Positions 19,506 to 48,351 of a stretch of 64,000 nt of DNA are shown piece by piece; the first letter of the stretch is position 1, and each line of letters begins with the position of its first letter. The notes below the pieces were generated by a model. The model saw nothing but the letters and a program-made list of their open reading frames with translations, searched no databases and was not told the DNA's origin. A program made the position numbers and the translations under genes. Source of the stretch: Bacteroidia bacterium (GTDB taxonomy: Bacteria; Bacteroidota; Bacteroidia; SpSt-205); NCBI GenBank assembly GCA_026003215.1, contig BPGV01000001.1, positions 213,570-277,569 of the forward strand, given 5' to 3'.

Positions 19506-22500
19506 TTAGGGACGTACGAGGATAAAAGCTCCCCAGAAGTAAGGCGCGGACCGAGCCGTGCGCATGGCTTTTTGGGTATTCCAGAAGGCTTCTTCTATGG
19601 GGAGTTTTTTCTGGAGCCATTCGGTGTAGAAGCGGATCATAAAATCTCGGGTGGCTTCGTCATCCACTTTCCATAAGCTTAGAAGAAGGTTGCGGGCGCC
19701 TGCCAAGAGGAAGGCCCGCTGAAGACCATAGACCCCTTCGCCGTTTTGCACTTCTCCCAGCCCAGTCTCACAGGCCGAGAGGGCTACCAGTTCCGTATTG
19801 GTAAGCTGCAAGGAAAGCAGTTCGTACGCGTTGGCAATCCCATCTCGGCTTACATCAGTAGAGCCATAGAGCATGGTGCGTCCCGACTCAGCTAAAAGAA
19901 GCGCCGAACGAAAGAGGGGGTTAGCCAGCGCACTTCCACTTTGAATACCCACTAAGCTTCCGAGCCCTTCATCATACGGTAGGAAAATACCGTGGGTGGC
20001 AATGTGCAAGATATACGGGGAAACCGTCTCATATAAGCGGTTTTCTGTGGCTTGCGTACGAGTATAAATATAAGCCAAAATGCCCTGCCCTTGGAGGATA
20101 TCTCGTATAGCTTTAGCTTCTTCTGCGGTACCGGGGAGGGGAGGTACATAGAGGCTATCTGTGGAAACGCCTGGGGCATACTCAGGGTCTGCTATAAGGT
20201 AAGCTTTCCTACCCTCATAGTAACGCAGCGGCTTTGGGGGCGCAGTTAAGCTGGCCAAACGGGAGTAGTGGATAACTTTGTACTTATCCACAATATACCC
20301 CCCTGCTGGTAGCAGCATTGCGGAGGGATTTATCTGGTAATACACACCATCGCCTGACACATAAAGGGTCGTAGTACCTTCGGGAAGCTTTTCTATGATA
20401 GGTTGCCAATAGGCTGCATAGGAGGTTGTATCTTTTTCAAAATTGAGGATAGACTGACTATAACGGAAAAAGTAGTAGTTTTCCATCTTTTTCCCTTGGG
20501 GAAGGGTCACATAGATAGGTGTTTTGAGAGCAGGTGTAGTTAGGACGGCTTGATATACCACTGAGTCCTTAGCTGTCGGCACTCGGAGCCGGATCCAATC
20601 TATGGCTACGGTTTGGGCAGGTAAAGCGCTACGAAGCTGGCGCCACGTAGGTCGTTTCATGCGAATGTCACCGATATAGGCCGTGAGCTGCTTTTCTAAC
20701 TCATTAAGGCGATTTTCTTCCTCTGCCAGATTGATGCCCAGTTCTTTGAGCTCATTCGGGGAATAGGCATACAGGCGAACTACATATTCTTTTTGGTCTT
20801 GCCATTCTTGAAAGATTCGTTGGACAGTTGTGTCTGGGGTCCGGGCCAAGCGGGCGCGCAGCTGCGCTGTTTCACTGAGCAAGAAAGCTTTGGTGGCCAG
20901 ATGCACTTCGTATGCTTTGAGTTTAGCGGCGTCGGTGCCTTGGGTGAAAGCAAAGGCCATATAATGTTCTAAGACCTGTTTGACACGGTTCCAATAGCGG
21001 GTCTTTTCGCTTTCTGTGAGACCATTGAAGAGCCTATCTACTTGGAAAAGGAGGAGGGAGACAGCTTTTTCGTAGGCTTTTTTGGCAGAAGACAGGTCGC
21101 GTGCGAGCCAATAGCTATCGGCCATCTCAGCCAGATAGAAGGGATATTCGGGATGTTTTGTGCCATAGACACTACTCCAGAGGGCAAGCCAGCGTTTGAA
21201 GTCGGCTAAGGCTGGAAGGTACTCTCCTTGGGCGCGTTTGAGACGGGCTTGATACAGGAAAGCGCGCATCCGATCCGGATGGCGCAGCGGCACCTGAGCG
21301 TCTAATACGGCTTTTGCGGCGGCGATGCGCTCTTCGGCTTCTGGGAGGCTATCCAGAGCTAACCACAAACCTCCGATGTCCAAAGACAAAGTGGCATACT
21401 CTAAGGGTGCACTATGTTGGGCGCGTTCTGCTTCTTCTGCGGCTTTTTCTAAAAAGGAGCTGGCGGAGTCGTTCTTACCTTGGAAAAAATGATTTTCTGC
21501 CAGGAGATAAAGGGTTCGGGCTAAAGGCAAGGCAGGTTGCCCAGCATAAAACCCTCTTTGTGCTTGTTCGGCTTCATGCAATAGATGACCTTGCTTATCA
21601 TACCGGCCTAAGACTCCTTCTGTGCGGGCAGAAGCAAGGAGCGCTTGTACGTAAGTGGGTGAGGATCGACCTAATAAACGCGCACTAAGGTCTCGGGCTT
21701 TTTTAGCGGTTTCTTCTGCCTTTAGATAATCTCCCAGCAAGAGATAAAAATCTGTCAGGGAAATATAATAGCTTGCTACTTCTCCATCCTCACGGTGGCT
21801 ACTTTGGTAGAGACGAGTGATTCGCTCGTACACTTCTTTAGCGCGGGTGAGGCGTCCTGTGCGTTGATACAGAAGGGCTAATCGCAGGAGCGAGGCGCTT
21901 TCTTCGCCAGCAGGCGTGCCTCCTTCTTTCTGCTGGCGCATGCGCAGGCGCACGGCTTCCATGTAGAGTTTTTCCGCTTCGCGAAACTGACCTTGGGCCT
22001 GGGCTAAGTCTCCTTTGAGCTCGTAGAAGGCAATGCGTTCTGCAAGGTAAGCAGAGGGTAGGTCTTCTATGGGTTTTTCCAAGGTGCGTAGCAGGGTCTC
22101 GGCTGCTGCGGGTTGAGCCAAGCGCAAGGCTAAGTCTGCCTCTAAGAGCAGGACTCGTAGGTAAGGCAGGCTTTGGGTAGGTCTTTTGAGGAGGCGCTCG
22201 TAGGTACGCTGTTGGCGTTCAAGGAGGGCTTGGGCGGAAAGATAAGCTCCTGCTTGCACGTTTCGGCGGGCAAGTGCTTCTCGGATAGCAAAAGTGAGGG
22301 GACCTTCGGGTTCTCCTATGGCGGCTAAAAGGCGGGCAGCTGTGGCAAAAGCGCTATCTGCCTGGGCATACTTGTACCCCAAGAGGGCCGCTTCGCCGAC
22401 TTCTGTCCAGGTGCGAGCCGCTTCCAAGGTAGCGAAAGGCCAGTTTTGGAATCGTTGGGCCGCTTGCTGGGCATAGCCCAAGGCGATGGCAGGGCGATAC

Positions 22501-23561
22501 TGTGCTCGGGCTATCTGAGAAGCTATACGTTGGAGCTGTGCGGCCAACAGCCCTTCCCCCTTCCCTATTACTAAACTTAGTACATTTTCAGCCAAGGGGA
22601 GTCGCTGGGCGAGCTGTCCAATCTGCAAGAGATGTTGTAGGGCTTCTGCGGTGGCGTATGAAACAGGCAATGCAGGATTGCGTAGATTTTTGAGGATGGG
22701 GTTGAGTTGGCGAATGCGGCGGTTATACGAACTTCTGTTGCTTTCCAGGAGGGTATGGAGAAAAGAAAGAAGCTGTGCCCGTATTTGTAAATCCAGTCCA
22801 CCATAAGAAGTTTTTTTAGCCCATCGTAGACTTTGCTTTAGGTAGCTTTCGGATTTCTTTTTATCTCCGGCTAAGTCCGCGCTAAGGGCGAGCCAGTAAG
22901 TGTATTGGGCCTGGTAGTAAGCGGCTTCTTCACCACGGAAGGTACGAGGCAAGGAGGGGGGCAGGGAGTCCCATTCTCCCTTTTGCCAGTGGGCCCATAA
23001 GGTGAGGAAAGTTTTTCTTTGGCGGAGGTAGGTGCCATACGGCTCCACGAGTTCAGTGGGGAGAAAGACGGCTTGCAGGGTATCAGCGGCCTGGGGGGCA
23101 TTGCCTACGAGCAGGAGGTTTTCGGCTATTTCCAAGCCCAGGAGTGCTTGTTGCCAGGCATTTGGGCTGTGGTTTTTAGCCGATAAGAAGGCCTTTTGTG
23201 CTTGGGGGATGCGTCCGAGGCTACGATGAGTTCGGCCTTGAATCCAATAATAATAAAATCGCACTTGGGGAGGAAGCGCGGTATTTCCCTCCACTACGGG
23301 GCTTATCTGACGTAAGAGGGAGTCGGCTTGGTAGGGGGCCTGTTGCTCTACAAGGCTAAGCGCATAGGCTAATCCTGCCGCTAATACCTCTGGGTCTTGC
23401 GGCCCTTTACGCTTGACAACTTTGGTATAGGCTGAACGGGCTTTTTTAGGGAAGGCGTGTCCTTTCCCTTGAAAATATACAGGCTCATAGGGGAGGAGCT
23501 GTGCGAAGACGATGCCTATGCCCAGTGCAAGCCATAGAGAGGGGCGGAGGAATGGGGGCAT
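19506..23561 (-). CDS. Secreted TPR-CHAT caspase-like protein
   Basis: A 1351-residue protein with a signal peptide (about 1-20, ending VFAQ), a very long helical-repeat region of tetratricopeptide character (roughly 30-950) and a C-terminal CHAT domain. The caspase-like dyad is intact: His1190 in HIATHG and Cys1264 in SACETG. CHAT domains in TPR-CHAT proteins act as regulated cysteine proteases, including in type III-E CRISPR systems. Here no CRISPR component is near and the signal peptide puts the protein outside the cytoplasm. It begins nine bases after rplS with no promoter visible between, so it appears to be transcribed with a ribosomal protein. Substrate unknown. Confidence 0.9.
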   Translation of the reverse strand: MPPFLRPSLWLALGIGIVFAQLLPYEPVYFQGKGHAFPKKARSAYTKVVKRKGPQDPEVLAAGLAYALSLVEQQAPYQADSLLRQISPVVEGNTALPPQVRFYYYWIQGRTHRSLGRIPQAQKAFLSAKNHSPNAWQQALLGLEIAENLLLVGNAPQAADTLQAVFLPTELVEPYGTYLRQRKTFLTLWAHWQKGEWDSLPPSLPRTFRGEEAAYYQAQYTYWLALSADLAGDKKKSESYLKQSLRWAKKTSYGGLDLQIRAQLLSFLHTLLESNRSSYNRRIRQLNPILKNLRNPALPVSYATAEALQHLLQIGQLAQRLPLAENVLSLVIGKGEGLLAAQLQRIASQIARAQYRPAIALGYAQQAAQRFQNWPFATLEAARTWTEVGEAALLGYKYAQADSAFATAARLLAAIGEPEGPLTFAIREALARRNVQAGAYLSAQALLERQQRTYERLLKRPTQSLPYLRVLLLEADLALRLAQPAAAETLLRTLEKPIEDLPSAYLAERIAFYELKGDLAQAQGQFREAEKLYMEAVRLRMRQQKEGGTPAGEESASLLRLALLYQRTGRLTRAKEVYERITRLYQSSHREDGEVASYYISLTDFYLLLGDYLKAEETAKKARDLSARLLGRSSPTYVQALLASARTEGVLGRYDKQGHLLHEAEQAQRGFYAGQPALPLARTLYLLAENHFFQGKNDSASSFLEKAAEEAERAQHSAPLEYATLSLDIGGLWLALDSLPEAEERIAAAKAVLDAQVPLRHPDRMRAFLYQARLKRAQGEYLPALADFKRWLALWSSVYGTKHPEYPFYLAEMADSYWLARDLSSAKKAYEKAVSLLLFQVDRLFNGLTESEKTRYWNRVKQVLEHYMAFAFTQGTDAAKLKAYEVHLATKAFLLSETAQLRARLARTPDTTVQRIFQEWQDQKEYVVRLYAYSPNELKELGINLAEEENRLNELEKQLTAYIGDIRMKRPTWRQLRSALPAQTVAIDWIRLRVPTAKDSVVYQAVLTTPALKTPIYVTLPQGKKMENYYFFRYSQSILNFEKDTTSYAAYWQPIIEKLPEGTTTLYVSGDGVYYQINPSAMLLPAGGYIVDKYKVIHYSRLASLTAPPKPLRYYEGRKAYLIADPEYAPGVSTDSLYVPPLPGTAEEAKAIRDILQGQGILAYIYTRTQATENRLYETVSPYILHIATHGIFLPYDEGLGSLVGIQSGSALANPLFRSALLLAESGRTMLYGSTDVSRDGIANAYELLSLQLTNTELVALSACETGLGEVQNGEGVYGLQRAFLLAGARNLLLSLWKVDDEATRDFMIRFYTEWLQKKLPIEEAFWNTQKAMRTARSAPYFWGAFILVRP

Positions 23562-33723: not shown

Positions 33724-34640
33724 CGGCGGAAAAGTATCATTCCTCCAGTAGTAAGTAGGGCAGCCACACCCAGCTGCCAAGAAAGGGGTTCCTGCCCTAT
33801 CCCAGCAGCTAACGCAGCCGTGCCTATGGGTTGAAGGTTAATATACAAAGCCGCTTGAGTCGGGGTCAACTGGGTGAGGCCGGCATTCAATAAAAGATAG
33901 GCCAGGACCGACATGCCCACGATAAGGTATCCTAAGCTCACCCAGGCGCCTGGTGTCAGGGTGGCCCAGGATTGGCGGAAAAAACCCCCAATCAAGGTAG
34001 GGGTATGTAAAAGGGCCCCTATGAGCATTACATAAGAAGTTACCGCGAGCGCCCCCAGCCGCTCTATCATGGGGGGGGAAAAGTTTAAGTACCAGCCCCA
34101 AAAGCCTACGGCTACAAGAATAAGCAACCAGCCCCACCCGTGTGCGCTATGAAGGACATTGTGCCAAAGAGCTAAAACTACCCCTATGTAGGCCATAGCT
34201 AACGCAAAGAGCTTTGAAGTTGAAACCTTCTCTCGTCCAAAGACGGATACCCCTAACCAAAAGACTACCGAAGGCGTAAGGGCATAGATGAGTGCGGTAG
34301 TTGCGGCTGTCGTGTAGCGTAATCCCCAGTTGAAGAGCAGCTGATTAAAAAATATACCCAGTATGGCGATAATGAACAACCTTTTTTGCCAGGATTTAGG
34401 CAAGTCGCTCCAACCATAGGCGATATACCCTTTTCGTTTAAAGAATGGCCAGAGGAGGAGATAAATAGCTGCACTGCCCCAGGCTCGGAGGCCTGTCAGA
34501 AGCAGGGGATCAAACCGCTGGGCAGCCTCCCTCCCTATCACATAGCCGCCGCATATAATAGCCGTCTGTCCCAGTAAGGCTGCATGTCCTACCCAAGAAG
34601 AGGGCTTAGCTACGACATTTACACTTCCAGACGGTCGCAT
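33720..34640 (-). CDS. EamA/DMT-family transporter
   Basis: Inner-membrane metabolite transporter of 306 residues with about ten hydrophobic helices arranged as two EamA repeats. The first repeat includes ILGIFFNQLLFNWGLRYTTA; the second ends with the PTQAALYINLQPIGTAALAA segment. Substrate unknown. It overlaps the AddB-like gene upstream by 22 bases and tadA downstream by four. Confidence 0.92.
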   Translation of the reverse strand: MRPSGSVNVVAKPSSWVGHAALLGQTAIICGGYVIGREAAQRFDPLLLTGLRAWGSAAIYLLLWPFFKRKGYIAYGWSDLPKSWQKRLFIIAILGIFFNQLLFNWGLRYTTAATTALIYALTPSVVFWLGVSVFGREKVSTSKLFALAMAYIGVVLALWHNVLHSAHGWGWLLILVAVGFWGWYLNFSPPMIERLGALAVTSYVMLIGALLHTPTLIGGFFRQSWATLTPGAWVSLGYLIVGMSVLAYLLLNAGLTQLTPTQAALYINLQPIGTAALAAGIGQEPLSWQLGVAALLTTGGMILFRR

Positions 34641-37162
34641 AATAAAGCAAAATCACAATACCGGCAACTGTAGTGGTCAGTGGTCTGAGGAAAGGCTAAG
34701 GCGCCTTCTTTTGACTTCTTCTCCAGCTTAGGTACAATATTACTGATGAGCTGCTCTAACTTATTGAGGTATTCTTGTATCCCCTCTGGATGAAAGGCCG
34801 CATAGAGGGTATCTGGGCCCGCCTCTTGCTTAGGGCGCCACCAGAGATTGATAATGACTATCGTAGGCAAGGAATTAAGCGTTGCGCCCCCGCTTTTTGA
34901 AAGGGCGTGGAGGTAGATTAGAGCTTGCAGGCCCGATTCTGGAAACTTTTTGGGGGGGGTATAAGGTTCATTTGTCTCAGGCCAGCGCCAATCCCAAGGA
35001 ATAGTATGCAACTTTTTGACATCTTGGGAAAGGGATGACTTAAAATCTATCAGGTAACGACGCGGTGACTCAAGTACTTCTCCTGTAGTAGGGTCTGTCC
35101 ATGCTTCTATGAGTAAATCTATGCGGCCCTTTATCGGGGGGCTTGGTAGCGATACAGGGGTTTCGGAAAAGAAATGCAGCCTATGATAGAACTGCGCAAA
35201 ATGTCGAAAACGAAGCACTTTTTGGGGATTTGCTGCAGATTCATACAAAAGAGCTGTAAGGCTGTGGAGGATAGGTTGGCTTACTTGCGCCATGAAAGGG
35301 CGTAAGGGCTTATATTTTCGCTTCCAGAGAGGCTGCTGGTCACGCGCACGAATCCTCCCCAAGCGGTAATAGAGTCTTCTGCAGCTCAGGCGATACGCTA
35401 CCTTTCGGAGAGAAGCTTCATACGCCGCATGAGGAGCGCGGCGGGAACGAAAAGCCCAGCCTACGATTTCATGAAGGAGGGTACCTATTTCAGCGGCTTC
35501 GGAAGCGGGACGCTCAGAGAGGACCTTTTGCCAATAAAATCTTCTTGGGCAAATAAAAAGCTGACTTAGCTCGGAGGGAGAAAGGGGGGTGGAGGCTGAA
35601 AGCGGTGTATTGGGGGTTAAAGGTTGGGAGGCGAGGCGTGGCGGTGGCGGATTCGGAGGCGAAGGCGAGATCGTGAAGTACTTAGCTATGGAAAGGCTAT
35701 CGGCATGGGTCAAAAGGTCTTCTATGGGTGTGGAGTTTTCTACGCCGGCAAGACGCCAGAGAAAGATATTTTTACTGCCCCAGAGGAGGAGCGAGAGAAG
35801 CCGCCACCCTAACTTTCGGTGGGCCTCAGGGGAAAAGAAGCGGCGGCGTAAGCCCGCAGGCCAGAAGCTCACCCTTTCCCATCGGCCTAAAAACTCTCCG
35901 GGCGGATTTATCAAGAAGAGTGCGTCATAAGCCCCTCCAGCTATCTGCGGCAGGCGACCTAAGTAAATACGCGTTTGCGGAAAGATCCCCTTATAGATAG
36001 GATTGCGGCTTTGTAAGAGCTGAAAGAGAAACTGCCAAGCATTGGGATCTTCGGGGACCATTTTTGAGGTTACCTGGGCATAGAGGGTGGCAGCCCACTG
36101 GTCAGCAGGGTCTTCGGAGGCAGATACCATCGGCCATGCCCGCACCTTGCCTGCCAAGCCATCCAGGAGAAGTGGTTGTAAGCTTTTACCTACTTGGGTA
36201 CTTTCCCATAGAGCTGTGGGTTTGGCTGAAATTATTTCCTGATAAGGAAGCTGTTTTTCTATAAACTGTTGAAAAATAATCAGGGTATCCTCCCTCCCCC
36301 ACACGGCTATACGGGCCTCAGGGTTTTGGTTGTGCCATGCTGCCAGGGTTTGTGCGGCCTCTTCTAAAAGCTCTATAAGAGAAGGACGTTCATAAATGGT
36401 TACTTGTCGTGCAGAGTCTGGCCATGTAGCCACTCGCGTGCCGGGGAAAGGCTTATCCCACACTTCAGGGAGCATAGTGGATAGCAATTCAGTATCCCAC
36501 CGCCAGACTTCTGCCCCTGCTTTTGCCCCATTCGCTATAACTTTTTCTAAAAGGGGATAAGAACTATATACATGGAGAAAGACCACTTTTTCCCAAGCCA
36601 TATCTGAGCTATGTAAAACTTGTTGAAGAGCTTCTTCGGCGAAAAGGCGATTCTTTTGTGAGAGGTATTGGTGATAGTGATGAATGAAGTCAACGAAATT
36701 TTCCCAAAATATACCCTTGGAGCTATCTATAAGAGGTAGGGGTAGCTGCTGGAGCCAAGTGAGAGCATTTTTTTCATACAAGGCAAATAGTTGAGCGATC
36801 TCTTTTTCGGCTTTGAGGGCCTTCCAGTAGCCCAAAGCTTCTTGCAGGGAGGAGGTGGCCCAAAGTACCTCTTGCCAATCACGCCCGAGGCGCTGGGCCA
36901 TCGCCCAATGCTCAGGAAAGTAGGTTTCTCCGGTGCGCCCTATACGAGCTAAAGCCTTGTCAAAGGCTTCCAAAAGATCAAGCGGATTAGGTTTATTTTT
37001 TTTTGCTTTTTCTGAGGCCCAGGTGAAAATATCTTGTATGTAGGGATAGCCTGTATCTATTTTCAGCGCTTCGGCTAAAAAAGGGTCAGCGGTAACGAAT
37101 ACCTTACCCTCCGTACTACGGAGTGCGTGATAAAAGGGCTCCGGGAGTAAGCCTGAGCTCAT
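34619..37162 (-). CDS. AddB-like PD-(D/E)XK nuclease with iron-sulfur cysteines
   Basis: An 847-residue protein. The C-terminal third is a RecB-family nuclease: EIGTLLHEIV, GRIDLLIE and YLIDFKSS carry the catalytic residues. Four cysteines suit the AddB-type 4Fe-4S staple: Cys538 in CPRRFYW and Cys833, Cys836 and Cys842 near the C-terminus. The N-terminal part resembles an inactive helicase fold and shows no Walker A motif, as in AddB. It probably acts in double-strand break processing, but no AddA-like helicase gene is in the window. It overlaps the coiled-coil gene by ATGA. Confidence 0.87.
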   Translation of the reverse strand: MSSGLLPEPFYHALRSTEGKVFVTADPFLAEALKIDTGYPYIQDIFTWASEKAKKNKPNPLDLLEAFDKALARIGRTGETYFPEHWAMAQRLGRDWQEVLWATSSLQEALGYWKALKAEKEIAQLFALYEKNALTWLQQLPLPLIDSSKGIFWENFVDFIHHYHQYLSQKNRLFAEEALQQVLHSSDMAWEKVVFLHVYSSYPLLEKVIANGAKAGAEVWRWDTELLSTMLPEVWDKPFPGTRVATWPDSARQVTIYERPSLIELLEEAAQTLAAWHNQNPEARIAVWGREDTLIIFQQFIEKQLPYQEIISAKPTALWESTQVGKSLQPLLLDGLAGKVRAWPMVSASEDPADQWAATLYAQVTSKMVPEDPNAWQFLFQLLQSRNPIYKGIFPQTRIYLGRLPQIAGGAYDALFLINPPGEFLGRWERVSFWPAGLRRRFFSPEAHRKLGWRLLSLLLWGSKNIFLWRLAGVENSTPIEDLLTHADSLSIAKYFTISPSPPNPPPPRLASQPLTPNTPLSASTPLSPSELSQLFICPRRFYWQKVLSERPASEAAEIGTLLHEIVGWAFRSRRAPHAAYEASLRKVAYRLSCRRLYYRLGRIRARDQQPLWKRKYKPLRPFMAQVSQPILHSLTALLYESAANPQKVLRFRHFAQFYHRLHFFSETPVSLPSPPIKGRIDLLIEAWTDPTTGEVLESPRRYLIDFKSSLSQDVKKLHTIPWDWRWPETNEPYTPPKKFPESGLQALIYLHALSKSGGATLNSLPTIVIINLWWRPKQEAGPDTLYAAFHPEGIQEYLNKLEQLISNIVPKLEKKSKEGALAFPQTTDHYSCRYCDFALLCDRLEV

Positions 37163-39063: not shown

Positions 39064-42000
39064 TTATTCTTCGTAGTAAGTGATGATGAGGGAGTCGCCT
39101 GCGCGCACTTCGTCGGATTTGAGGAAGTTGAGGTCTCGGAGCTGTTCTACGGAAACACCATACCGCTGAGCGATGCTGGGGAGGGTCTCCCCGGCTTGTA
39201 CTTTATGGATACGGGCTTTGGGGACTTTTTTGAGGGTAGGCACTTCCTTATCCAGCCGAGGGTCCTCTAAGAAGAAAGTGCGTCTTTGTTGAGGAGTCAA
39301 GGCAGGGAGGTTCTTTTCATGCGCAAAATCTATGAGGGCCTGTCTGTCGGGGAGCAGTGGGTAAAGATAGACGCTCCCCCGCGGGCCGGGTACCGCCAAG
39401 AGCTGGCCATCTGGACTAAACGCCGGGCGGAACTGGATATGCAGCGGGAAGCGGTATTCAGTCAAGCGGAGGAAGGTCCGGCCGCTCCATAGGCGTGCGG
39501 TTTGGTCTGTGGCGATGGAAAGGATGTGTAAGCCCGTAGGACTCCATTGTACGGCATAAGGGATGCCTTTATGGCCGGAGAGGGTGTGAAGGAGTTTCCC
39601 CGAAGGGAGATCCCACACCCGCAAAGTAGAATCGGCACTGGCGGTGACCACCTTGTGTCCCTCAGGGTGAAAAGCAGCTGCGGTAAGCCCAAGTCTGTGT
39701 CCGACGAGGATGGCCAGCCGCTTCCCTTCCCAGTTCCAGAGGGAAGCCGTACCATCCTCGCTCAGCGCAAGAATCCACTGCTCATCTGGTGAGAGCAGTA
39801 CCTGCGAGATAGCCCCGCTATGCGCCTGGAGGCGGATAGGGTCTCCGTTGGTGGTTTTCCAAAGGTAAAGGGACCCCAAGCGGGTAGCTATGACGGCTTT
39901 ACTGCCATCTCGCGTGAGGGCGCCATGCAAAGCCTCGCTATCTAAATGGGCGGTGCGTAAAAGCTCCCCAGAGGTACCCCGCCACAAACGCGCCGTTTTA
40001 TCTAAGGAAGTAGTGAGGATGGTAGATGCATCCGCAGATAGCGCGATGTGGGTGAGGTTGTCTTTATGTCCCCAAAGCCGAGCTATACTCACGCCTTGGG
40101 AAAGGTCCCACACACGGGCCGAAAAATCTTCTGCCAGCGAGACCAAATATTTGAGGTCTTGGGAGAAATAGACTTTTTCTACGATATGGGTATGGCCGCG
40201 CAGTACTTCTCGGGAGGCGCCTGACTGGACGTCCCAAATGCGTATAGTTTTATCCCAACTGGCGGTGGCCAGCTGCTCACCGGCCGGGCTAAAGGTGGCA
40301 TAAATGACGCGGTTTTTATGACCGATAAGTTTTTTGAGGGGTTCTTTATAAAGGTGAGCGTGGAGGGCATAGTAGAGGGCAGCTTCGGCTTCTTCCACGT
40401 AGGGGCGTTCGTTGGGGTTGCCGATATGACGAGGCAAGGCTTCCATGGCTAAACGGGCAGCTACTTGGGGATAGCCTTTGCGGGTTTGCTCCTCAGAGAG
40501 TGCAGCGAGGAAGAGCGATTGCAGGATGAGGGCTTTATTGCGCTGGAGGATAGCAATTTGGGTTTGGTATTCCGCTTGGGCTTGGTTGTACTGGGCGTTG
40601 ATGCGGGCGGCCTCGGCGAGGCGGGTTTGGTTTTCGGCGATGCGCTGCTGGATAAAGGCGCGCTCACGCTCCATTTCAGCGATGCGGCGCTGGGCTTCGG
40701 CGATGATCCGTTGGCGTTCGGCATTAGAGCGTTCTGCTTGAGCGACACGCAGGGCATTTTCGGCAATAAGCTTTTGCTGTAGGGCGAGGTAGCGTTCTTT
40801 TTCCGCCAAGAGCTTTTGGTGAAGCGCTTCTTCGGCGTTTTTCTCTGCGAGGAGGCGCTGTTCTTGGGCGATTTGGGCTTGCCGGCGGGCTTCTTCGGCG
40901 TTTTTCTCGGCTAAGCTGCGTTGTACTTCGGCATAGTACAAGGCTATCAGGCTGAGGAGGAAAAGCAGGGTAATAATCCCCAACGCCAAGAGGAGGAGGC
41001 GGCGGTTGCGCTCTATGCGGGCCTTGCTGCGGGCTAAGTACAGCTCAATAGCGTCTCGCAGGGCAAGGGCTTGGGTAAGGGGGTCCTCATCCGGTACGAG
41101 CTCCTCAGGTAGGAGATAGCGGCGTATCCATGCAGCATTCGGACGGGTGCCGTAATACCACTCCGAGAAGTACTGATAGGCGCCGCCACTCAAAAGCAGG
41201 CGATTGGACTGGTGGGCTTCCAGCCACCGCTGCACTTGAAACTTCAGCTCCCGGAAGATTCGTACGCTTTGGGCCTCAGCTTCGGCCCAACGGATGAGCC
41301 GCTCCCAGTTTCGGATGAGGGATTCATGGGAGACGGTGAGGGTATCATTTGGGCTAAGTAGAGGACTTTCGCCCTCTCGCAAGGAAGGTTGAAGGAAGCT
41401 TACCTTTTCACTGCGGAAAAGCGCCGCGACCCGAGCTACTACTTCTGGGGTAACCCCTTCAAGACCCAAAATGTCGGTAATCTGGCCGAGGGTGAGGCGG
41501 GCTCGTACCGCTCGCCCCTCGTCTATCCGTGTGAGAGAGACAAAAAGCCCCCGTATAATCGCCTGTAAAAGGTCTATGCTTAGCGACTCGCTGTAGTGCG
41601 CTTGATAGAGGCGGTCCAGGTTATTATAGAGCCACTCGGCGTGGAAGTTGAGTACATTCCGCAGGCGGGCGTTTGGGTAGAGTTTCTTTTCGGTTTCTGG
41701 AAGGGAAGCTAAATATTTTTCAAAGAGAGGGCGGTCTTGTTCAGGAAGGCGGTTTGCGGCTAACCCTCCTACCAAGGCGTATTCCAGCAGGTCCAGGGGT
41801 CTTTTGCCTTCATCGGCGGCGTGCCATATGCGGTGGAGGGCATGTTGGAGTACGGGCAGCTGGTCTATCCCATCGCCTAAGTCGTTGAGGAGACGCTGGG
41901 TGAGGCGCGGCGTGATGCGGTCCCCATTCAGTTCTACGGGCTTTTCTATGACGGCTTGAAACTCCTCTCGGGTGAGCCGCGGTACGAAGTAGGTGCTCTC

Positions 42001-43575
42001 CCCTATCAGTTCGGCAAAGCCGTGGAAGGCCACGCACTGCCCGATAAAGTCCGACCGCATGGTGAAGATGACCCAAATCGGGAGACCTTCCCGCTGAGCT
42101 ATGCGGATGGTTTCGGAGAGTACATTTACGGTGATCTGTGCCAGGGGGGAAGCCACGCCCGCTGAGTAGTTTTCTTCATTGGTGAAAAACTCTTCAAACT
42201 GGTCTACGAGGATGAGGAGGTTTTGGCCTTCGCGCAGGCGGGCGATTTTTTCGGTGTCGGAGAGGGCTTGGAAGGCTTCTGAAGTGGGATCCACGTAAGC
42301 AGGGGAACTCTTGTAGAGGTCTACCAAGGCCGAGAAGCCGTAGACTAAGCGGTTTTCCACAGCGGCGACTTGGCTGTATCCCAACGCGCTGGCTAAGGCT
42401 GTGGCCAAGTTCGTTAGCGGCTGCTTTTCAGGGCGGAAGGTAGCGATGGCCCAGCTCGGATATGGGGCCGGCATAAGGTTCGCGCGCAGCGCAGGTAATA
42501 CGCCCGCAAATACCAACGACGACTTCCCATCCCCTGAGGCCCCCGTCACCATGACAAACTTCCGCTCTTGGAGCTGCTCTAAAATCTTGGTGATGTGCTT
42601 GTCGCGCCCATGGTAAAAGACCATTTCTTCTTCTTCAAAGGGACGCAGGCCGATATAGGGGCACACACGCGGACTATCGGGCCATACTGAGGATTTTTTC
42701 GCTTCTTGGAGAGCTGAAGCGATGTGGTTTCCTATTTCTTCTATGGGGGCCAGTTGGAGTCGGATGTTAGGCACTCGGACCGAAAGCGTGCGATTGCGCA
42801 AGGGCTCAGGAGGGCCTATCAGCAGAATAGGTGTAGGCGCGCTCAGCCCACCGCTGGCTTTCCAGATTTGCTGAGCTACTGAGACAGCCCAATCCCCCGC
42901 CCGATGGAAGAAGATAACCAATAGCTGACTCTGCTGGTAGATCCGTAGCGCTTCTTTTGCATCTTGGTCGGCTTGTTCTGGCCGGAAAGAAAGGGTATGT
43001 ACCTTAAAGGCTTTGGAGAGTTTTTCGGTTAGCTCGAAGCAGCTTTCAGCGTCGCGGGCATTATGGATGAAGCCGACCTCGTATTGTTTGACGGCCTGAC
43101 GGGCTTCTACGGCCTCGCTGAGGAAGGCGCGCACCTCTTGAATAAGGAGTGGCAAGCTGGCTGTGCGCGTGAGCATCACCCGATTGGTGAGCGTGTTTTC
43201 TATATGGGTGAGCAGCTCTTGGGCTTCTACCGTATAAATCGTTCCCTCTTCGTGTGGAGCCCACACTATCAGCCGAAACCGTGGCGAGACCTGCTGGAGG
43301 AGGAGTTCGTATTGTTTTTTCAGGAGAGGGGTGCCCTCAGGCAGGAGAGGCCCCACTTCGGGCCCTAAAATGAGAAAAGCGGCATCGTATTGCTCCCCCA
43401 CTTGGGACAAAAGGGAAAGGTCTGAAACCGCGGGCTTTTCTACCTGATAGCCGGCGTTAGCGAGCATGACGCTCAAAACCTCCCGTCGCGTTTCATCGGC
43501 GGGACTCACCCAGCCCAGCCAGAGAGAGAGCGTCCGAGCCCTTGTCTCTGTCGTCAAGACCGAAGCTGTCTCCAT
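39064..43575 (-). CDS. Membrane-spanning STAND NTPase with WD40 repeats and LysM
   Basis: A 1503-residue multidomain protein. Residues 15-155 and 165-290 are two alpha/beta domains with TIR-like order but no clear catalytic residue. A STAND NTPase of the nSTAND1 type follows: entry motif CPYIGLRPFEEEE (305-317), Walker A GASGDGKSS (345-353), Walker B LLILVDQFEE (453-462). One membrane helix lies at about 858-881, then an Ala/Glu-rich coiled coil with repeats of LAEKNAEEA (882-1035), seven clear WD40 repeats plus one degenerate (about 1080-1400), and a LysM domain (about 1453-1503, HKVQAGETLPSIAQRYGV). The topology suggests cytosolic NTPase and N-terminal domains with an external propeller and peptidoglycan-binding end. 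The start follows TACTTTTG by four bases. Role unknown; signalling or defence is inference. Confidence 0.9.
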   Translation of the reverse strand: METASVLTTETRARTLSLWLGWVSPADETRREVLSVMLANAGYQVEKPAVSDLSLLSQVGEQYDAAFLILGPEVGPLLPEGTPLLKKQYELLLQQVSPRFRLIVWAPHEEGTIYTVEAQELLTHIENTLTNRVMLTRTASLPLLIQEVRAFLSEAVEARQAVKQYEVGFIHNARDAESCFELTEKLSKAFKVHTLSFRPEQADQDAKEALRIYQQSQLLVIFFHRAGDWAVSVAQQIWKASGGLSAPTPILLIGPPEPLRNRTLSVRVPNIRLQLAPIEEIGNHIASALQEAKKSSVWPDSPRVCPYIGLRPFEEEEMVFYHGRDKHITKILEQLQERKFVMVTGASGDGKSSLVFAGVLPALRANLMPAPYPSWAIATFRPEKQPLTNLATALASALGYSQVAAVENRLVYGFSALVDLYKSSPAYVDPTSEAFQALSDTEKIARLREGQNLLILVDQFEEFFTNEENYSAGVASPLAQITVNVLSETIRIAQREGLPIWVIFTMRSDFIGQCVAFHGFAELIGESTYFVPRLTREEFQAVIEKPVELNGDRITPRLTQRLLNDLGDGIDQLPVLQHALHRIWHAADEGKRPLDLLEYALVGGLAANRLPEQDRPLFEKYLASLPETEKKLYPNARLRNVLNFHAEWLYNNLDRLYQAHYSESLSIDLLQAIIRGLFVSLTRIDEGRAVRARLTLGQITDILGLEGVTPEVVARVAALFRSEKVSFLQPSLREGESPLLSPNDTLTVSHESLIRNWERLIRWAEAEAQSVRIFRELKFQVQRWLEAHQSNRLLLSGGAYQYFSEWYYGTRPNAAWIRRYLLPEELVPDEDPLTQALALRDAIELYLARSKARIERNRRLLLLALGIITLLFLLSLIALYYAEVQRSLAEKNAEEARRQAQIAQEQRLLAEKNAEEALHQKLLAEKERYLALQQKLIAENALRVAQAERSNAERQRIIAEAQRRIAEMERERAFIQQRIAENQTRLAEAARINAQYNQAQAEYQTQIAILQRNKALILQSLFLAALSEEQTRKGYPQVAARLAMEALPRHIGNPNERPYVEEAEAALYYALHAHLYKEPLKKLIGHKNRVIYATFSPAGEQLATASWDKTIRIWDVQSGASREVLRGHTHIVEKVYFSQDLKYLVSLAEDFSARVWDLSQGVSIARLWGHKDNLTHIALSADASTILTTSLDKTARLWRGTSGELLRTAHLDSEALHGALTRDGSKAVIATRLGSLYLWKTTNGDPIRLQAHSGAISQVLLSPDEQWILALSEDGTASLWNWEGKRLAILVGHRLGLTAAAFHPEGHKVVTASADSTLRVWDLPSGKLLHTLSGHKGIPYAVQWSPTGLHILSIATDQTARLWSGRTFLRLTEYRFPLHIQFRPAFSPDGQLLAVPGPRGSVYLYPLLPDRQALIDFAHEKNLPALTPQQRRTFFLEDPRLDKEVPTLKKVPKARIHKVQAGETLPSIAQRYGVSVEQLRDLNFLKSDEVRAGDSLIITYYEE

Positions 43576-43712: not shown

Positions 43713-46700
43713 TTATGGGCCTGCGCTTTGCCGGAGGGCATTCTGGTTGCTCCGGAGAAGGAGAGCGTCGGCGGCATCCACATCGCCATCCGCATCCAAG
43801 TCGGCCCATGAAAAGCCGGCAGTAATGCCACTTCGAGGAAGGAGAAATTCCCAATCGGCGGCGTTGATGCCTCCCCTATCATACCCGAGCCCTTGACCGG
43901 GGCCGAAGTCGTTCAGCTGGTCGGCACAGTTGCCGGCCCAAGTCGCAGCATACATGCGCCCCCCCCGGCCCAGCGATGAGCTTGTACTGCTGTCCGGGCA
44001 CCCCCTGCAAAGAAGAAGGGTCCGTAAGGTCAAAAGTATCCGCTTCTCCTACCCCACGGGCCGGCAGGCTCACCACTGCTGTATAGAGCGGCAGGTGATT
44101 AGGGGTGCGAAGCACAAAGTATTTAGCGGCATTTGTATCGCACACGCAGAAGCTGAGCGTATCTCCATATATGCGGCCGCCCGTATAGGTAGTTAGGGGC
44201 AGAGGGTAGGCACTGGTAAAAGGATAAAGGTGCCCCAACGTGTCTATCACCGCCCAGGCTGTGTCTATGCGCTGATGAGTGGCGGCATCATAGGCCTCTA
44301 CCCGAGCTATAGCACTGCCCAAGGAAAAAGTAGGGATGATGTAGTTAGGTGGGGATGAAAAGTCCTGCCTTCGCCATAAGAAAGAGTCGGCTTCCCAGGG
44401 CCAGGCAGGCAAGCGCCACAGGGAGTCGGTTAGGGTCGCCGAGGGCATGCGTAGGTAAGTAAAGAAGGTTGCCGGCGTGAGGTAGGGATGTGGTGGCTGG
44501 AGGCAGCCGCTACACCCCCGTGTGGCGGGCCCTTCTAAGGCAGCCCTAAATCGTATCCGATGCCCGCGTCGCACCAGGATAGGCTTACGCAGGGCGCCGC
44601 TCGCTCCTATCAAGAAGCTGGCCTTCGGGGTTGAAGTGCCCAGTATCAGCGTATCCGGTCCCGGCGCTATCCCCCGTATCCACCAAGCTGAGGTAGGCAT
44701 ACCCGGGCCCCGTGCGTTATCAATGAGCACGCGTCCTTGGGTGCTGCTCAGCGAAAAAGTAGGCCAGTTACATACGGTACCCCCATAGCCTGTCCCGTAG
44801 AAAAGCGTATCTGCCCGGGTGCCCGACAGGGCCCCCACGCAGAGCGTATCTGGAGCATAGAGCGCCGTACCCACTAAGGGTATCCGATAGCCCCAGTAAG
44901 AAAATAGCTTTCCCGGGCTACAAGGCGCTATGCTAAACGATACCTGTCCCGAGTCTAATCCGAACCCCGTACCACTATACCACTGTGCGCTGGGATTGAG
45001 GTAAAGCCTATCTCCTGAATGGCCGGCGTAAAAGATAGGCCCCCCTGTGCCTGTGATAGGGGCTTCGGCTTGGAGGGTATCTTGGGTAAAGTAGCTGGCC
45101 CATAAGGGCACAGCCAGCATGACCCCCCTGGCCCCGTGATGCGAAAAGGCGATACTGCCTCCCCGCAAGGTAGTCAGCCCAATAGCCCAGTAACCCATGC
45201 GAATTTCCCAGTTAGGGCCCTCTATACCACAGCTTCCCCCGAAAAAGAGCGTGTCTTTTACCCCTGTGCTTAAGTCGTAGCGTAGTACGGTAGCGCTTCC
45301 CGTCCAGGGGTGGCCTACCAAGAGCATAGGGCGTGGCCCTTCTACTACTGCCAGCTCGTGGGACACAAAAGAAGAGCCGGGTCGCCTGAGGGTATCTATG
45401 GTAGAAATCACATAGCCATATGGCGGCGTAGAGGAAGTGGGCACCGCTTTCCGCAAGAGATCGGCGTTGCTACAGGCGTTTTCTATCCAGTAGAGGGTGT
45501 CCTTGTGAGCAGTGATAGCCCGAATAGCCCCTATCCGAGTAGGGTCACAGGGTGGATAAGGAGCATCTTGTAATATCTGGCTTGGGGGGGCTACAGGGGG
45601 ACCCCATCGCCATAGACCTGCGTTGTAGGCCTGATAGAAAAAGTTGCCTGACGAAGCAAAAACAGTGGGAGCCTCCGGCGGAGTAGGGGGAGAAGGGATG
45701 GTAGAAAAGATCAAGTCAGGCCCAGTGTCCAGTCGGATAAGTCGCAGAGCGCCTACCTCCCGAAGGAAGAGGTTGCCTCTCAGGACATCATACCGTAGGA
45801 GACTTCCCCCCGAAGGGCCTGGTACAAGCGAGCCGGGCAACCGTACTGTCGTCTCGCTGGAAGAAGTCGTTCCTATCTTCCATGCGCGCAGGCGCACGAC
45901 TTGGCCATCGTGGAGTGTGACGCGATACAAAAAGGCCGAGTCGTTGGCGAACGTCCGTTCCAGGATATAGAGGCATTCTTTTCCGCCGGCGTGGGGGTCC
46001 CAGGGGACGTAGGCAACGCCGTGAATCACATCAAAGGAGCGGGCTTTTCGGTGGAAGGGGCCGGTGGCCCAGCGCGCCGGCGGAGCATTAGCATTGTCAG
46101 AACCCACATAGCGGAAGACCCAGAAGCGGTCCCCCAAGCTGCCTGCCCGCTGCGCGAGAGGGGTAGTCGTGCCTGAGACCTGTACCCATAACGTATCCCC
46201 CACATCGGCGAAGTTTCTGCCGAGGAGGGAGCTACGCAATACCAAGAAATACCGTCCTGGCGGCATCCGCCCCGATAAAAGCAAATCTACTGACCCTGAG
46301 GTAGAGCCCTCTATGTCGATTGCGGGGAAGTCCCTCGCCAAGCTACCCGCCCAAGGCTGCGTAGCCCGGTATCGGCGGGCAGGATCCTCCGGCATCCATA
46401 AAAGTTCTCGGCGATGAGTCGCTGCCCAGGTCCCTGTTATCCCAAGCTGTTGATTGGGTAAGCTGTCAGGCGCACACGCCGAGGATGCAATAGGCATAAC
46501 TGGTCCCAGATCCAAGCGATGAAGGTCTAAGCGGCCCACCCATATGCGTGGCACCCCTCCAGGTGCCGTCTGTAAGCTCAGGGTATCGCTGTGGCCGTCA
46601 TCCCATCGCGGCTCCACCAGTACGCTGTCACGCCCCCAGCCAAAGAGATAGAGGGAAGGCCTGGTAGGATGCTTGGCGAGGCTGGCGCACATTATCCCCT

Positions 46701-48351
46701 GGCGGGGCCCCTGCGACGCCAACGTCCCCAAGACCTTATAGCCCCCAAACCGCCAATCTGCCGGAGAGGGGGTTCTATAATACCGCAGTCCGAGAATGAA
46801 GCCATTGGCCTCACTGCCTGTGCCGCCAGGGAGGGCTGCCGGCGCATTCGTGACATTCGTCAGGCTCCAAGATGGGGATTTGACTATACCACTGAGATAC
46901 AAGTACGAAGTGGGCTGACCACTTAGAGAAGTAAGTGGCTCTATGGCTAAGCCTGTGAGCTGCAGGCTATCGGCTTCTGCCGTCACCACAGGCAGACGAT
47001 TAGGAAGGAGGTTGGGCTGAAATTGCATACCGGTCAGTATCAGCCGAGGACGCGCAGCTTGCGGGAGGGTAGTAGCCCCTATGGTATAGCCTGCGGTATC
47101 CACCGCCGCCCAGTATAAGTACCGAAAAGTACCACTCTGCGTAATAGATTGAAAAGCCACAAAGTAATGTGTAGCACTTTCCGATATGCTGGAGGCATAC
47201 TCAGCCAAGGTATAATGTGTGCCGGCCGGTACCGGGACAAGCTGCATAGTGCTCCCTTTGATGAGGAGGAGCCGTAACTTGGGCTCACTACTAACCCCTG
47301 TCCCAACACTACTTCCAGCGACTTTGTACCGGATATTGGTCCCTTGCTCTCTATTAGCTACAAGCCAACCCAGGGTATCCGGCCCAAAGGCCAAGAGCGC
47401 TCTCCCAAAACACCCTGCTGGAATACCGCCGAAGGATAAGTTGTCTTGTACGACAGCGGCGCTATCGGCCGTGAGAGAAAACGGGTCCATTCGGAGGAGT
47501 AATGCCTGAGCCGTAGGCGGATATCCCGTAACTGAGCTAAACAAAGCATCTATTGTGGAGTTAAGAGAAGAGGTTATTTGACTAAGTTCTACGGAGTTAT
47601 GTTCTGGCGATAATGATCCCTTTGTCACCACTGTCCCGCTGGCCCAGAGCTTACCCTCATGGAGCAGGAGCGAAAAAAGGTTTGCCTCAAAATTATCGCA
47701 GTTGAACGCTGCTATAAATCTACATTTTACCTGTTGGAGGGCATAGCTGGTTGGATTAGGGCTACCGGTCCCCATCTGCATGCGGAAAATAAAGCTCATG
47801 GGATATTCTGGGATATCGTTGCCGGAGGTGATGGGTGCTGGGGGCCCAGGGCTCACTATGACCGTAGTACCCCCATAGGCGAGCGTTATGCCTAATACTT
47901 GGCCAGAGCCGTAGGCTCTCGCGTGCAGGAGCACATAGAGGGTATGGTCAGGGGTCACCCATAGGTCTATTCCCCGTACATGAGTGGGGTCGCCGAGGGT
48001 ATAATAGGGATGGAAAGAAGCCTGCCATAGGAGTGTACCGTCGTGGCGATTATAGGCGAGGAGAACAGCCCTGGTATCATTATCATTTTGTACCCCCCAG
48101 CCTGATAAAGCGCCAGGCGGAAAAAAGGGATTACTGGCTTGGGCATGCTGTACAGTAGCCAAGATATATACGGTATCGCCTACCACGACCGTCTTGCCCA
48201 TCATGCGCTGGTAAGGCGCACCAGTCCCTAACCACGCTGCCGTAGGCTCAGCAGCACTTTGGGTGTCGTAGGTAAACCAATGCCATACCCCTGCCGTCTG
48301 CGCACTGAGTAGCCCCACCCCTGTCGCAAGCCACATGGACCAGACCTTCAT
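43713..48351 (-). CDS. Large secreted protein with dockerin-like tail, frameshifted near the 3' end
   Basis: A signal peptide (about 1-18, ending LLSAQ) is followed by a very long beta-rich region. Repeated blade-like segments such as VLLAYNRHDGTLLWQASF suggest beta-propeller structure. The uninterrupted frame ends at 43879 with an unlikely Arg-rich tail. One base fewer in the G8 run (minus strand; 43959-43966) continues it as GGRMYAATWAGNCADQLNDF to a stop at 43713, giving 1545 residues. The restored tail contains two calcium-loop-like repeats, the second DLDADGDVDAADALLL, like dockerin or EF-hand loops. Surface location is likely; ligand and function unknown. The start follows TATTTTTG by five bases. 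Confidence 0.82.

What the first reader, a model, noticed from the sequence alone, without database searches (positions are those of the whole stretch)
39064..43575. Membrane-spanning STAND NTPase whose sensor end carries WD40 repeats and LysM
The order is two TIR-like domains, an nSTAND1-type NTPase, one membrane helix, a ~150-residue coiled coil, seven to eight WD40 repeats, and LysM. STAND proteins normally sense in the cytosol through their C-terminal repeats. Here the helix between NTPase and repeats, together with a peptidoglycan-type LysM at the end, argues that the sensor is outside the inner membrane. A cell-wall-state or invader sensor transmitting to cytosolic N-terminal domains is a plausible and, to my knowledge, undescribed arrangement.
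Basis: partly seen in the sequence, partly recalled or inferred. Interest (0 to 1): 0.72.

Follow-up and report, generated by a model that had tools for sequence, protein, structure and literature searches.

The report
Wall-anchored membrane STAND switch protein
A lineage of probably heat-loving bacteria carries, as a single-copy gene in every species sampled, a signalling protein built like an immune-type switch but threaded through the inner membrane, with its sensing end predicted to sit outside and to end in a cell-wall-binding domain.

Summary
The architecture is real. The 1503-aa protein has two tandem flavodoxin/TIR-like domains, an intact nSTAND1 NTPase, one strong transmembrane helix, a 131-residue heptad coil, a WD40 propeller and a C-terminal LysM (E 2e-12, modelled as beta-alpha-alpha-beta). 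Charge bias puts the NTPase inside and WD40-LysM outside. The same genome also encodes a PP2C phosphatase-TM-LysM-LysM protein, which supports that topology. (1) Membrane-spanning nSTAND1 proteins with WD40 are not new: about 90% of the family proteins examined have the helix, and plasmid-borne TIR-nSTAND1-TM-WD40 proteins exist. The rare part is the LysM. (2) The first N-terminal domain belongs to the DUF4062 TIR-like family, but the likely catalytic Glu is Gln or Ala in 62 of 63 members, so it is probably an adaptor, not an NADase; in relatives a separate TIR or cyclase domain sits in the partner gene. (3) The gene is in 13 of 13 genomes of its order, without conserved neighbours or a hypervariable sensor. 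This fits a core envelope-state receptor better than phage defence. Best class: new variant of a known kind (membrane-spanning nSTAND1). Output and ligand remain unknown.

The parts
39064..43575 (-). whole gene, 1503 aa, apparently monocistronic
   Evidence: orthologs; neighbours not conserved
43096..43533 (-). domain D1 (residues 15-160), DUF4062-like TIR-like fold; catalytic Glu position holds Gln88
   Evidence: profile hits to DUF4062 in both directions; model pLDDT 92.7; residue counts at column 88
43312..43314 (-). codon of Gln88, aligned with the conserved Glu of canonical DUF4062 (Q 55, A 7, E 1 of 63)
   Evidence: identification with the catalytic Glu is by pattern
42685..43095 (-). 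domain D2 (residues 161-297), flavodoxin/TIR-like fold, no sequence-detectable link to TIR
41758..42660 (-). nSTAND1 NTPase core (residues 306-606); Walker A GASGDGKSS, Walker B LILVDQFEEFF, TMRSD and QLPVLQHAL conserved
   Evidence: 87% mean pairwise identity in the genus, 212/301 invariant
41002..41757 (-). STAND C-terminal/helical part (residues 607-858) with the SHE-LIRNW motif
   Evidence: second nSTAND1 stretch, alignment
40930..40998 (-). transmembrane helix (residues 860-882)
   Evidence: hydropathy 2.95, K/R 6 before versus 3 after; hydropathy at least 1.8 in 89 of 96 family proteins
40537..40929 (-). heptad coil (residues 883-1013), Ala every 7 residues, constant length
40345..40536 (-). 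helical linker before the propeller (residues 1014-1077)
39346..40344 (-). WD40 beta-propeller (residues 1078-1410), seven blades plus one extra strand pair
39076..39219 (-). LysM (residues 1453-1500)
   Evidence: Pfam E 2.3e-12; beta-alpha-alpha-beta in the model; conserved in orthologs

Best explanation
A single-pass inner-membrane receptor. The nSTAND1 NTPase and two TIR-like adaptor domains lie in the cytosol. A helix and a stiff heptad coil carry the WD40 propeller into the periplasm, and the terminal LysM holds it on peptidoglycan. I propose that a change in what the propeller or LysM binds, or in the distance and tension between membrane and wall, is passed down the coil. This would release or trigger nucleotide exchange and oligomerisation of the STAND domain and bring the TIR-like domains together as an adaptor platform for a downstream partner. 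Shown by sequence and model: domains, intact NTPase motifs, helix, constant coil register, LysM, universal presence in the order. Inferred: orientation, peptidoglycan binding, oligomerisation, the housekeeping (envelope-state) role. Unknown: ligand and output.
For: Domains. Orientation: net flank charge +4.3 on the NTPase side against +0.7 on the other side, averaged over 89 family proteins; 70 have more K/R on the NTPase side, 11 fewer. Cys is half as frequent beyond the helix (0.44 versus 0.89 per 100 aa). Same plan in the same genome: PP2C phosphatase - TM - Pro-rich linker - two LysM, next to a Ser/Thr kinase-TM gene; PP2C homologs occur in 13/13 genomes of the order, most in the genus matching over nearly the full length including the LysM end. 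Coil as a rigid spacer: TM-to-linker length is exactly 160 residues in 14 of 15 proteins down to 32% identity, and the exception and the internal shifts are multiples of 7; Ala at 18 of 19 successive heptad positions is invariant or nearly so. Core role: 13/13 genomes of the order, full length in the genus, against 6 of 394 other genomes of the phylum sample holding the N-domain. The WD40 part is not hypervariable (69% mean identity, like the N-domains at 68%).
Against: No experiment fixes orientation or peptidoglycan binding. The same fused family without LysM exists (G012, L051, L052), so LysM is not required for the basic function. No effector or partner is identifiable. The coil model has a low-confidence break near residues 940-959, so a hairpin is possible and the propeller could sit close to the membrane. 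Typical WD40 proteins are cytosolic.
Confidence: 0.5

Rival explanations
1. Anti-phage (abortive-infection) receptor: the STAND module senses an invader and fires a TIR-type toxic output.
For: nSTAND1 and DUF4062 are known from conflict systems (PMC8195603; PMC13174449). Relatives in Bacteroidota are patchy operons with TIR or cyclase domains and often two STAND genes, some on plasmids.
Against: Present in 13/13 genomes of the order. No TIR_2 domain in 11 genus genomes and no class III cyclase in the own genome. Catalytic Glu position is Gln. PADLOC gives only a weak hit on the WD40 part. Sensor not hypervariable. No viral copy found.
Confidence: 0.2
2. The C-terminal end stays in the cytosol: the helix is only a membrane anchor and the WD40-LysM part folds back as an ordinary cytosolic STAND sensor.
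For: TM-less nSTAND1-WD40 proteins exist (Nostoc), and WD40 is mostly cytosolic.
Against: One hydrophobic segment only, with the positive flank on the NTPase side. A terminal LysM would have no wall to bind. The PP2C-TM-LysM protein of the same genome has the same plan.
Confidence: 0.12
3. A structural envelope tether or ruler whose NTPase has become constitutive or scaffolding, with no signalling output.
For: Constant coil length in heptad steps; no effector found; core gene.
Against: The NTPase core is the most conserved domain (87% identity) with its motifs intact. The LysM-less family members keep the rest.
Confidence: 0.15

Closest known systems
nSTAND1 (PF20703) STAND NTPases with WD40 repeats
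   Same: NTPase core, motifs and C-terminal repeats; some relatives also carry the membrane helix
   Different: LysM at the end, two degenerate TIR-like domains in front, core presence in one order
DUF4062 TIR-like NADases: bacterial Swarozyc, human TEP1/NWD1 (PMC13174449)
   Same: DUF4062-type fold; NWD1 and TEP1 have the order DUF4062 - STAND (NACHT) - WD40
   Different: the conserved Glu is Gln or Ala; membrane helix, coil and LysM; nSTAND1 rather than NACHT
Bacteroidota operons [TIR or cyclase + N-domain] - [nSTAND1-TM-repeats], often twice (found here)
   Same: same N-domain and same nSTAND1-TM core, homologous over about 880 residues
   Different: N-domain fused in one gene, no effector domain, WD40 + LysM instead of helical/TPR-like sensors, not duplicated
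Caballeronia NK8 plasmid TIR-nSTAND1-TM-WD40 protein
   Same: TIR-named N-terminus, nSTAND1, membrane helix, WD40 in one chain
   Different: N-domain not matched by the family profile, no LysM, plasmid-borne
Streptomyces nSTAND1-TM protein annotated as substrate-binding
   Same: membrane helix shortly after nSTAND1; protein annotated with a substrate-binding domain, which is normally extracytoplasmic
   Different: other sensor and other N-terminus

Membership tests
nSTAND1 STAND NTPase | profile match over the curated cut-off | tested here: met
   236 bits against 27.1
nSTAND1 STAND NTPase | intact Walker A, Walker B and STAND C-terminal motifs | tested here: met
   key residues invariant in 9 species
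nSTAND1 STAND NTPase | nucleotide-dependent oligomerisation | not testable with these tools
   needs protein
DUF4062 TIR-like NADase (Swarozyc/TEP1) | DUF4062 profile match | tested here: inconclusive
   window domain itself does not match; 46 of 63 relatives match at E<=0.01 and the family profile finds canonical DUF4062 at E 4e-8
DUF4062 TIR-like NADase (Swarozyc/TEP1) | catalytic Glu (E97 of KpSwz) | tested here: not met
   Gln88; Q 55, A 7, E 1 of 63, aligned with the conserved Glu of canonical members. That this column is E97 is inferred from the pattern
LysM | profile match and beta-alpha-alpha-beta fold | tested here: met
   E 2.3e-12; model
LysM | binding to peptidoglycan | not testable with these tools
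   needs a pull-down
single-pass transmembrane receptor, N-in/C-out | one hydrophobic helix | tested here: met
single-pass transmembrane receptor, N-in/C-out | orientation | tested here: inconclusive
   charge rule and same-genome PP2C-TM-LysM agree, but this is prediction
anti-phage defence system | patchy, mobile distribution or defence island | tested here: not met
   13/13 in the order; neighbours differ between species and the window proteins scanned gave no clear defence system
anti-phage defence system | recognisable effector | tested here: not met
anti-phage defence system | protects against phage | not tested
   needs a plaque assay

The most novel reading that the evidence does not exclude
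A STAND (immune-type) NTPase was domesticated in one probably thermophilic Bacteroidota order into a housekeeping receptor that reads the state of the cell wall, or its distance from the membrane, through a peptidoglycan-anchored WD40 head on a fixed-length coil, with pseudo-TIR domains as a cytosolic assembly platform.
Probability: 0.3. Interest if true: 0.82.

Novelty: new variant of a known kind. Interest (0 to 1): 0.55.

Why it matters
STAND NTPases are mostly studied as cytosolic sensors of invaders. A conserved, membrane-crossing version with a wall-binding end would extend the STAND switch to envelope sensing and give a route by which an immune-type module becomes a housekeeping receptor. 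The two-to-three-gene Bacteroidota relatives (TIR or cyclase plus paired nSTAND1-TM genes), which I could not find described, are a related system with obvious candidate outputs.

Tried and rejected
Operon partner: none; neighbours are not shared in the orthologous loci that reach beyond the gene, except in one close relative. N-terminus as an NADase: rejected as the default because the Glu position is Gln or Ala. D2 as a sequence-level TIR: profile comparison with D1 and with the operon TIR domains gave nothing (E 0.04 and 0.08); the D1-versus-TIR hit in that call is an artefact, since a stretch of N-domain had been left in one TIR row. Foldseek on the N-terminus gives only generic flavodoxin-like matches (PleD, PorX, TIR-STING at E 6e-3). 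The phylum scan with the WD40-LysM junction mostly returns unrelated LysM proteins; the one other full-length match, G524, is a bin with 13% contamination and was not counted as a separate lineage. No close relative was found in viral contigs; three faecal phage records have a distant partial nSTAND1. The G012 homolog is split over two contigs, with a stop near one contig end; it was left unjoined and the halves were read apart.

Full report
The object. The ORF at 39064-43575 (minus) encodes 1503 aa. Pfam places nSTAND1 at 306-606 (E 1.4e-69), WD40 repeats from 1078 (E 9e-47) and LysM at 1457-1499 (E 2.3e-12). NTPase motifs (Walker A GASGDGKSS at 345-353, Walker B with D458/E461/E462, TMRSD, QLPVLQHAL, SHE-LIRNW) are kept in all nine aligned species, with single substitutions only at A346, A579 and S752. 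It is the only nSTAND1 over the cut-off in the 2.27-Mb genome.

Not an artefact, and a core gene. All 11 genus genomes, one further genus of the family and one further family of the order have it: 13 of 13 for the NTPase region, full length at 71-78% identity where contigs allow. The full-length orthologs have no gap between residues 300 and 1240. Flanking genes are not shared, apart from one close relative, so it appears to be a stand-alone gene. In an even sample of the phylum only 6 of 394 other genomes carry the N-domain. The organisms are uncultured Bacteroidia MAGs (titles); that they come from hot springs is my inference from the isolate names.

N-terminus. Residues 11-300 are predicted with high confidence (pLDDT 92.7) as two beta-alpha domains, with generic flavodoxin-like structural matches. 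The family profile of D1 finds canonical DUF4062 proteins (E 4e-8), and 46 of 63 family members match DUF4062 in Pfam at E<=0.01; the window's own copy is too diverged to match alone. DUF4062 was reported in May 2026 as a TIR-like NADase family with a catalytic Glu (PMC13174449, a preprint). In the alignment the conserved Glu of canonical members falls on Gln88, and the family has Q 55, A 7, E 1. Equating this column with E97 of KpSwz is an inference from the E-x-x-x-A pattern; I could not superpose the structures. D2 has no acidic residue four positions after the conserved Trp229, where a TIR would have its Glu, but D2 is not tied to TIR by sequence.

Relatives. A scan of 84,980 species genomes gave 76 loci. 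Most are operons: a first gene ending in the same N-domain and often preceded by TIR_2 or by a guanylate-cyclase domain plus a TIR-like stretch, then one or two nSTAND1-TM genes of about 1350 aa with helical/TPR-like C-termini. The two STAND genes form separate well-supported clades. The fused N-nSTAND1-TM-coil-WD40 proteins form one clade (SH-aLRT 100). LysM is present in the genus and in L047 and L049, absent in L051, L052 and G012. L047's LysM was read by eye from its sequence and the alignment; L049's scores E 6e-15. Whether LysM was gained once and lost, or gained more than once, is open.

Membrane and coil. A helix with hydropathy of at least 1.8 occurs in 89 of 96 family proteins; flank charges favour NTPase-in. 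The stretch from helix to linker is 160 residues in 14 of 15 fused proteins, with shifts of whole heptads only, and Ala recurs every seven residues. If straight, the 131-residue coil would be about 20 nm (0.15 nm per residue). The model breaks with low confidence near 940-959, so a hairpin is not excluded.

The terminal LysM. It models as beta-alpha-alpha-beta. The same genome encodes PP2C phosphatase-TM-Pro-rich-LysM-LysM beside a Ser/Thr kinase with a TM, conserved in the order at least for the phosphatase part. PP2C is cytosolic by established knowledge, so that protein very probably has its LysM outside, an internal precedent for the window protein.

Mechanism and rivals. I favour an envelope-state receptor: wall-anchored WD40 head, rigid coil, STAND switch, pseudo-TIR platform. 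Defence is weakened by universal presence, missing effector and a non-hypervariable sensor, but not excluded. I did not compare the gene tree with a species tree, so vertical inheritance is inferred from presence and copy number.

Novelty. nSTAND1-TM-WD40 is not new: see Bacteroidia, Caballeronia, and the suggestion of a periplasmic STAND sensor in PMC10907252. Full-text searches found no nSTAND1-LysM protein, in a library that lacks most subscription papers. I call it a new variant of a known kind.

Noticed in passing
G000:C1:300603-302021 (L147:604-2022), next gene L147:1977-3500: PP2C phosphatase - TM - Pro-rich linker - two LysM, overlapping a Ser/Thr kinase-TM gene: a possible wall-reading phosphatase/kinase pair; PP2C homologs in 13/13 genomes of the order.
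   Followed up: partly
L062, L084, L096 and many other loci: Widespread Bacteroidota operon: effector (TIR or guanylate cyclase) fused to the N-domain, followed by one or two paralogous nSTAND1-TM genes. The operon proteins were not scanned against PADLOC, and no paper describing them was found.
   Followed up: partly
L143:2533-6876, L142:1326-6540: Caballeronia plasmids carry TIR-nSTAND1-TM-WD40 as one protein, or a TIR gene followed by an nSTAND1-TM gene annotated as WD40.
   Followed up: partly
L144:2206-5250: Streptomyces plasmid nSTAND1 protein with a TM, annotated as containing a transporter substrate-binding domain.
   Followed up: no
19506-23561: TPR-CHAT protein (CHAT E 1e-56) in the same window, on the same strand.
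   Followed up: no
43879-48351: 1490-aa protein directly upstream with no Pfam match; begins like a secreted protein.
   Followed up: no
34619-37162: 847-aa protein with a C-terminal PD-(D/E)XK nuclease domain (E 3e-13).
   Followed up: no
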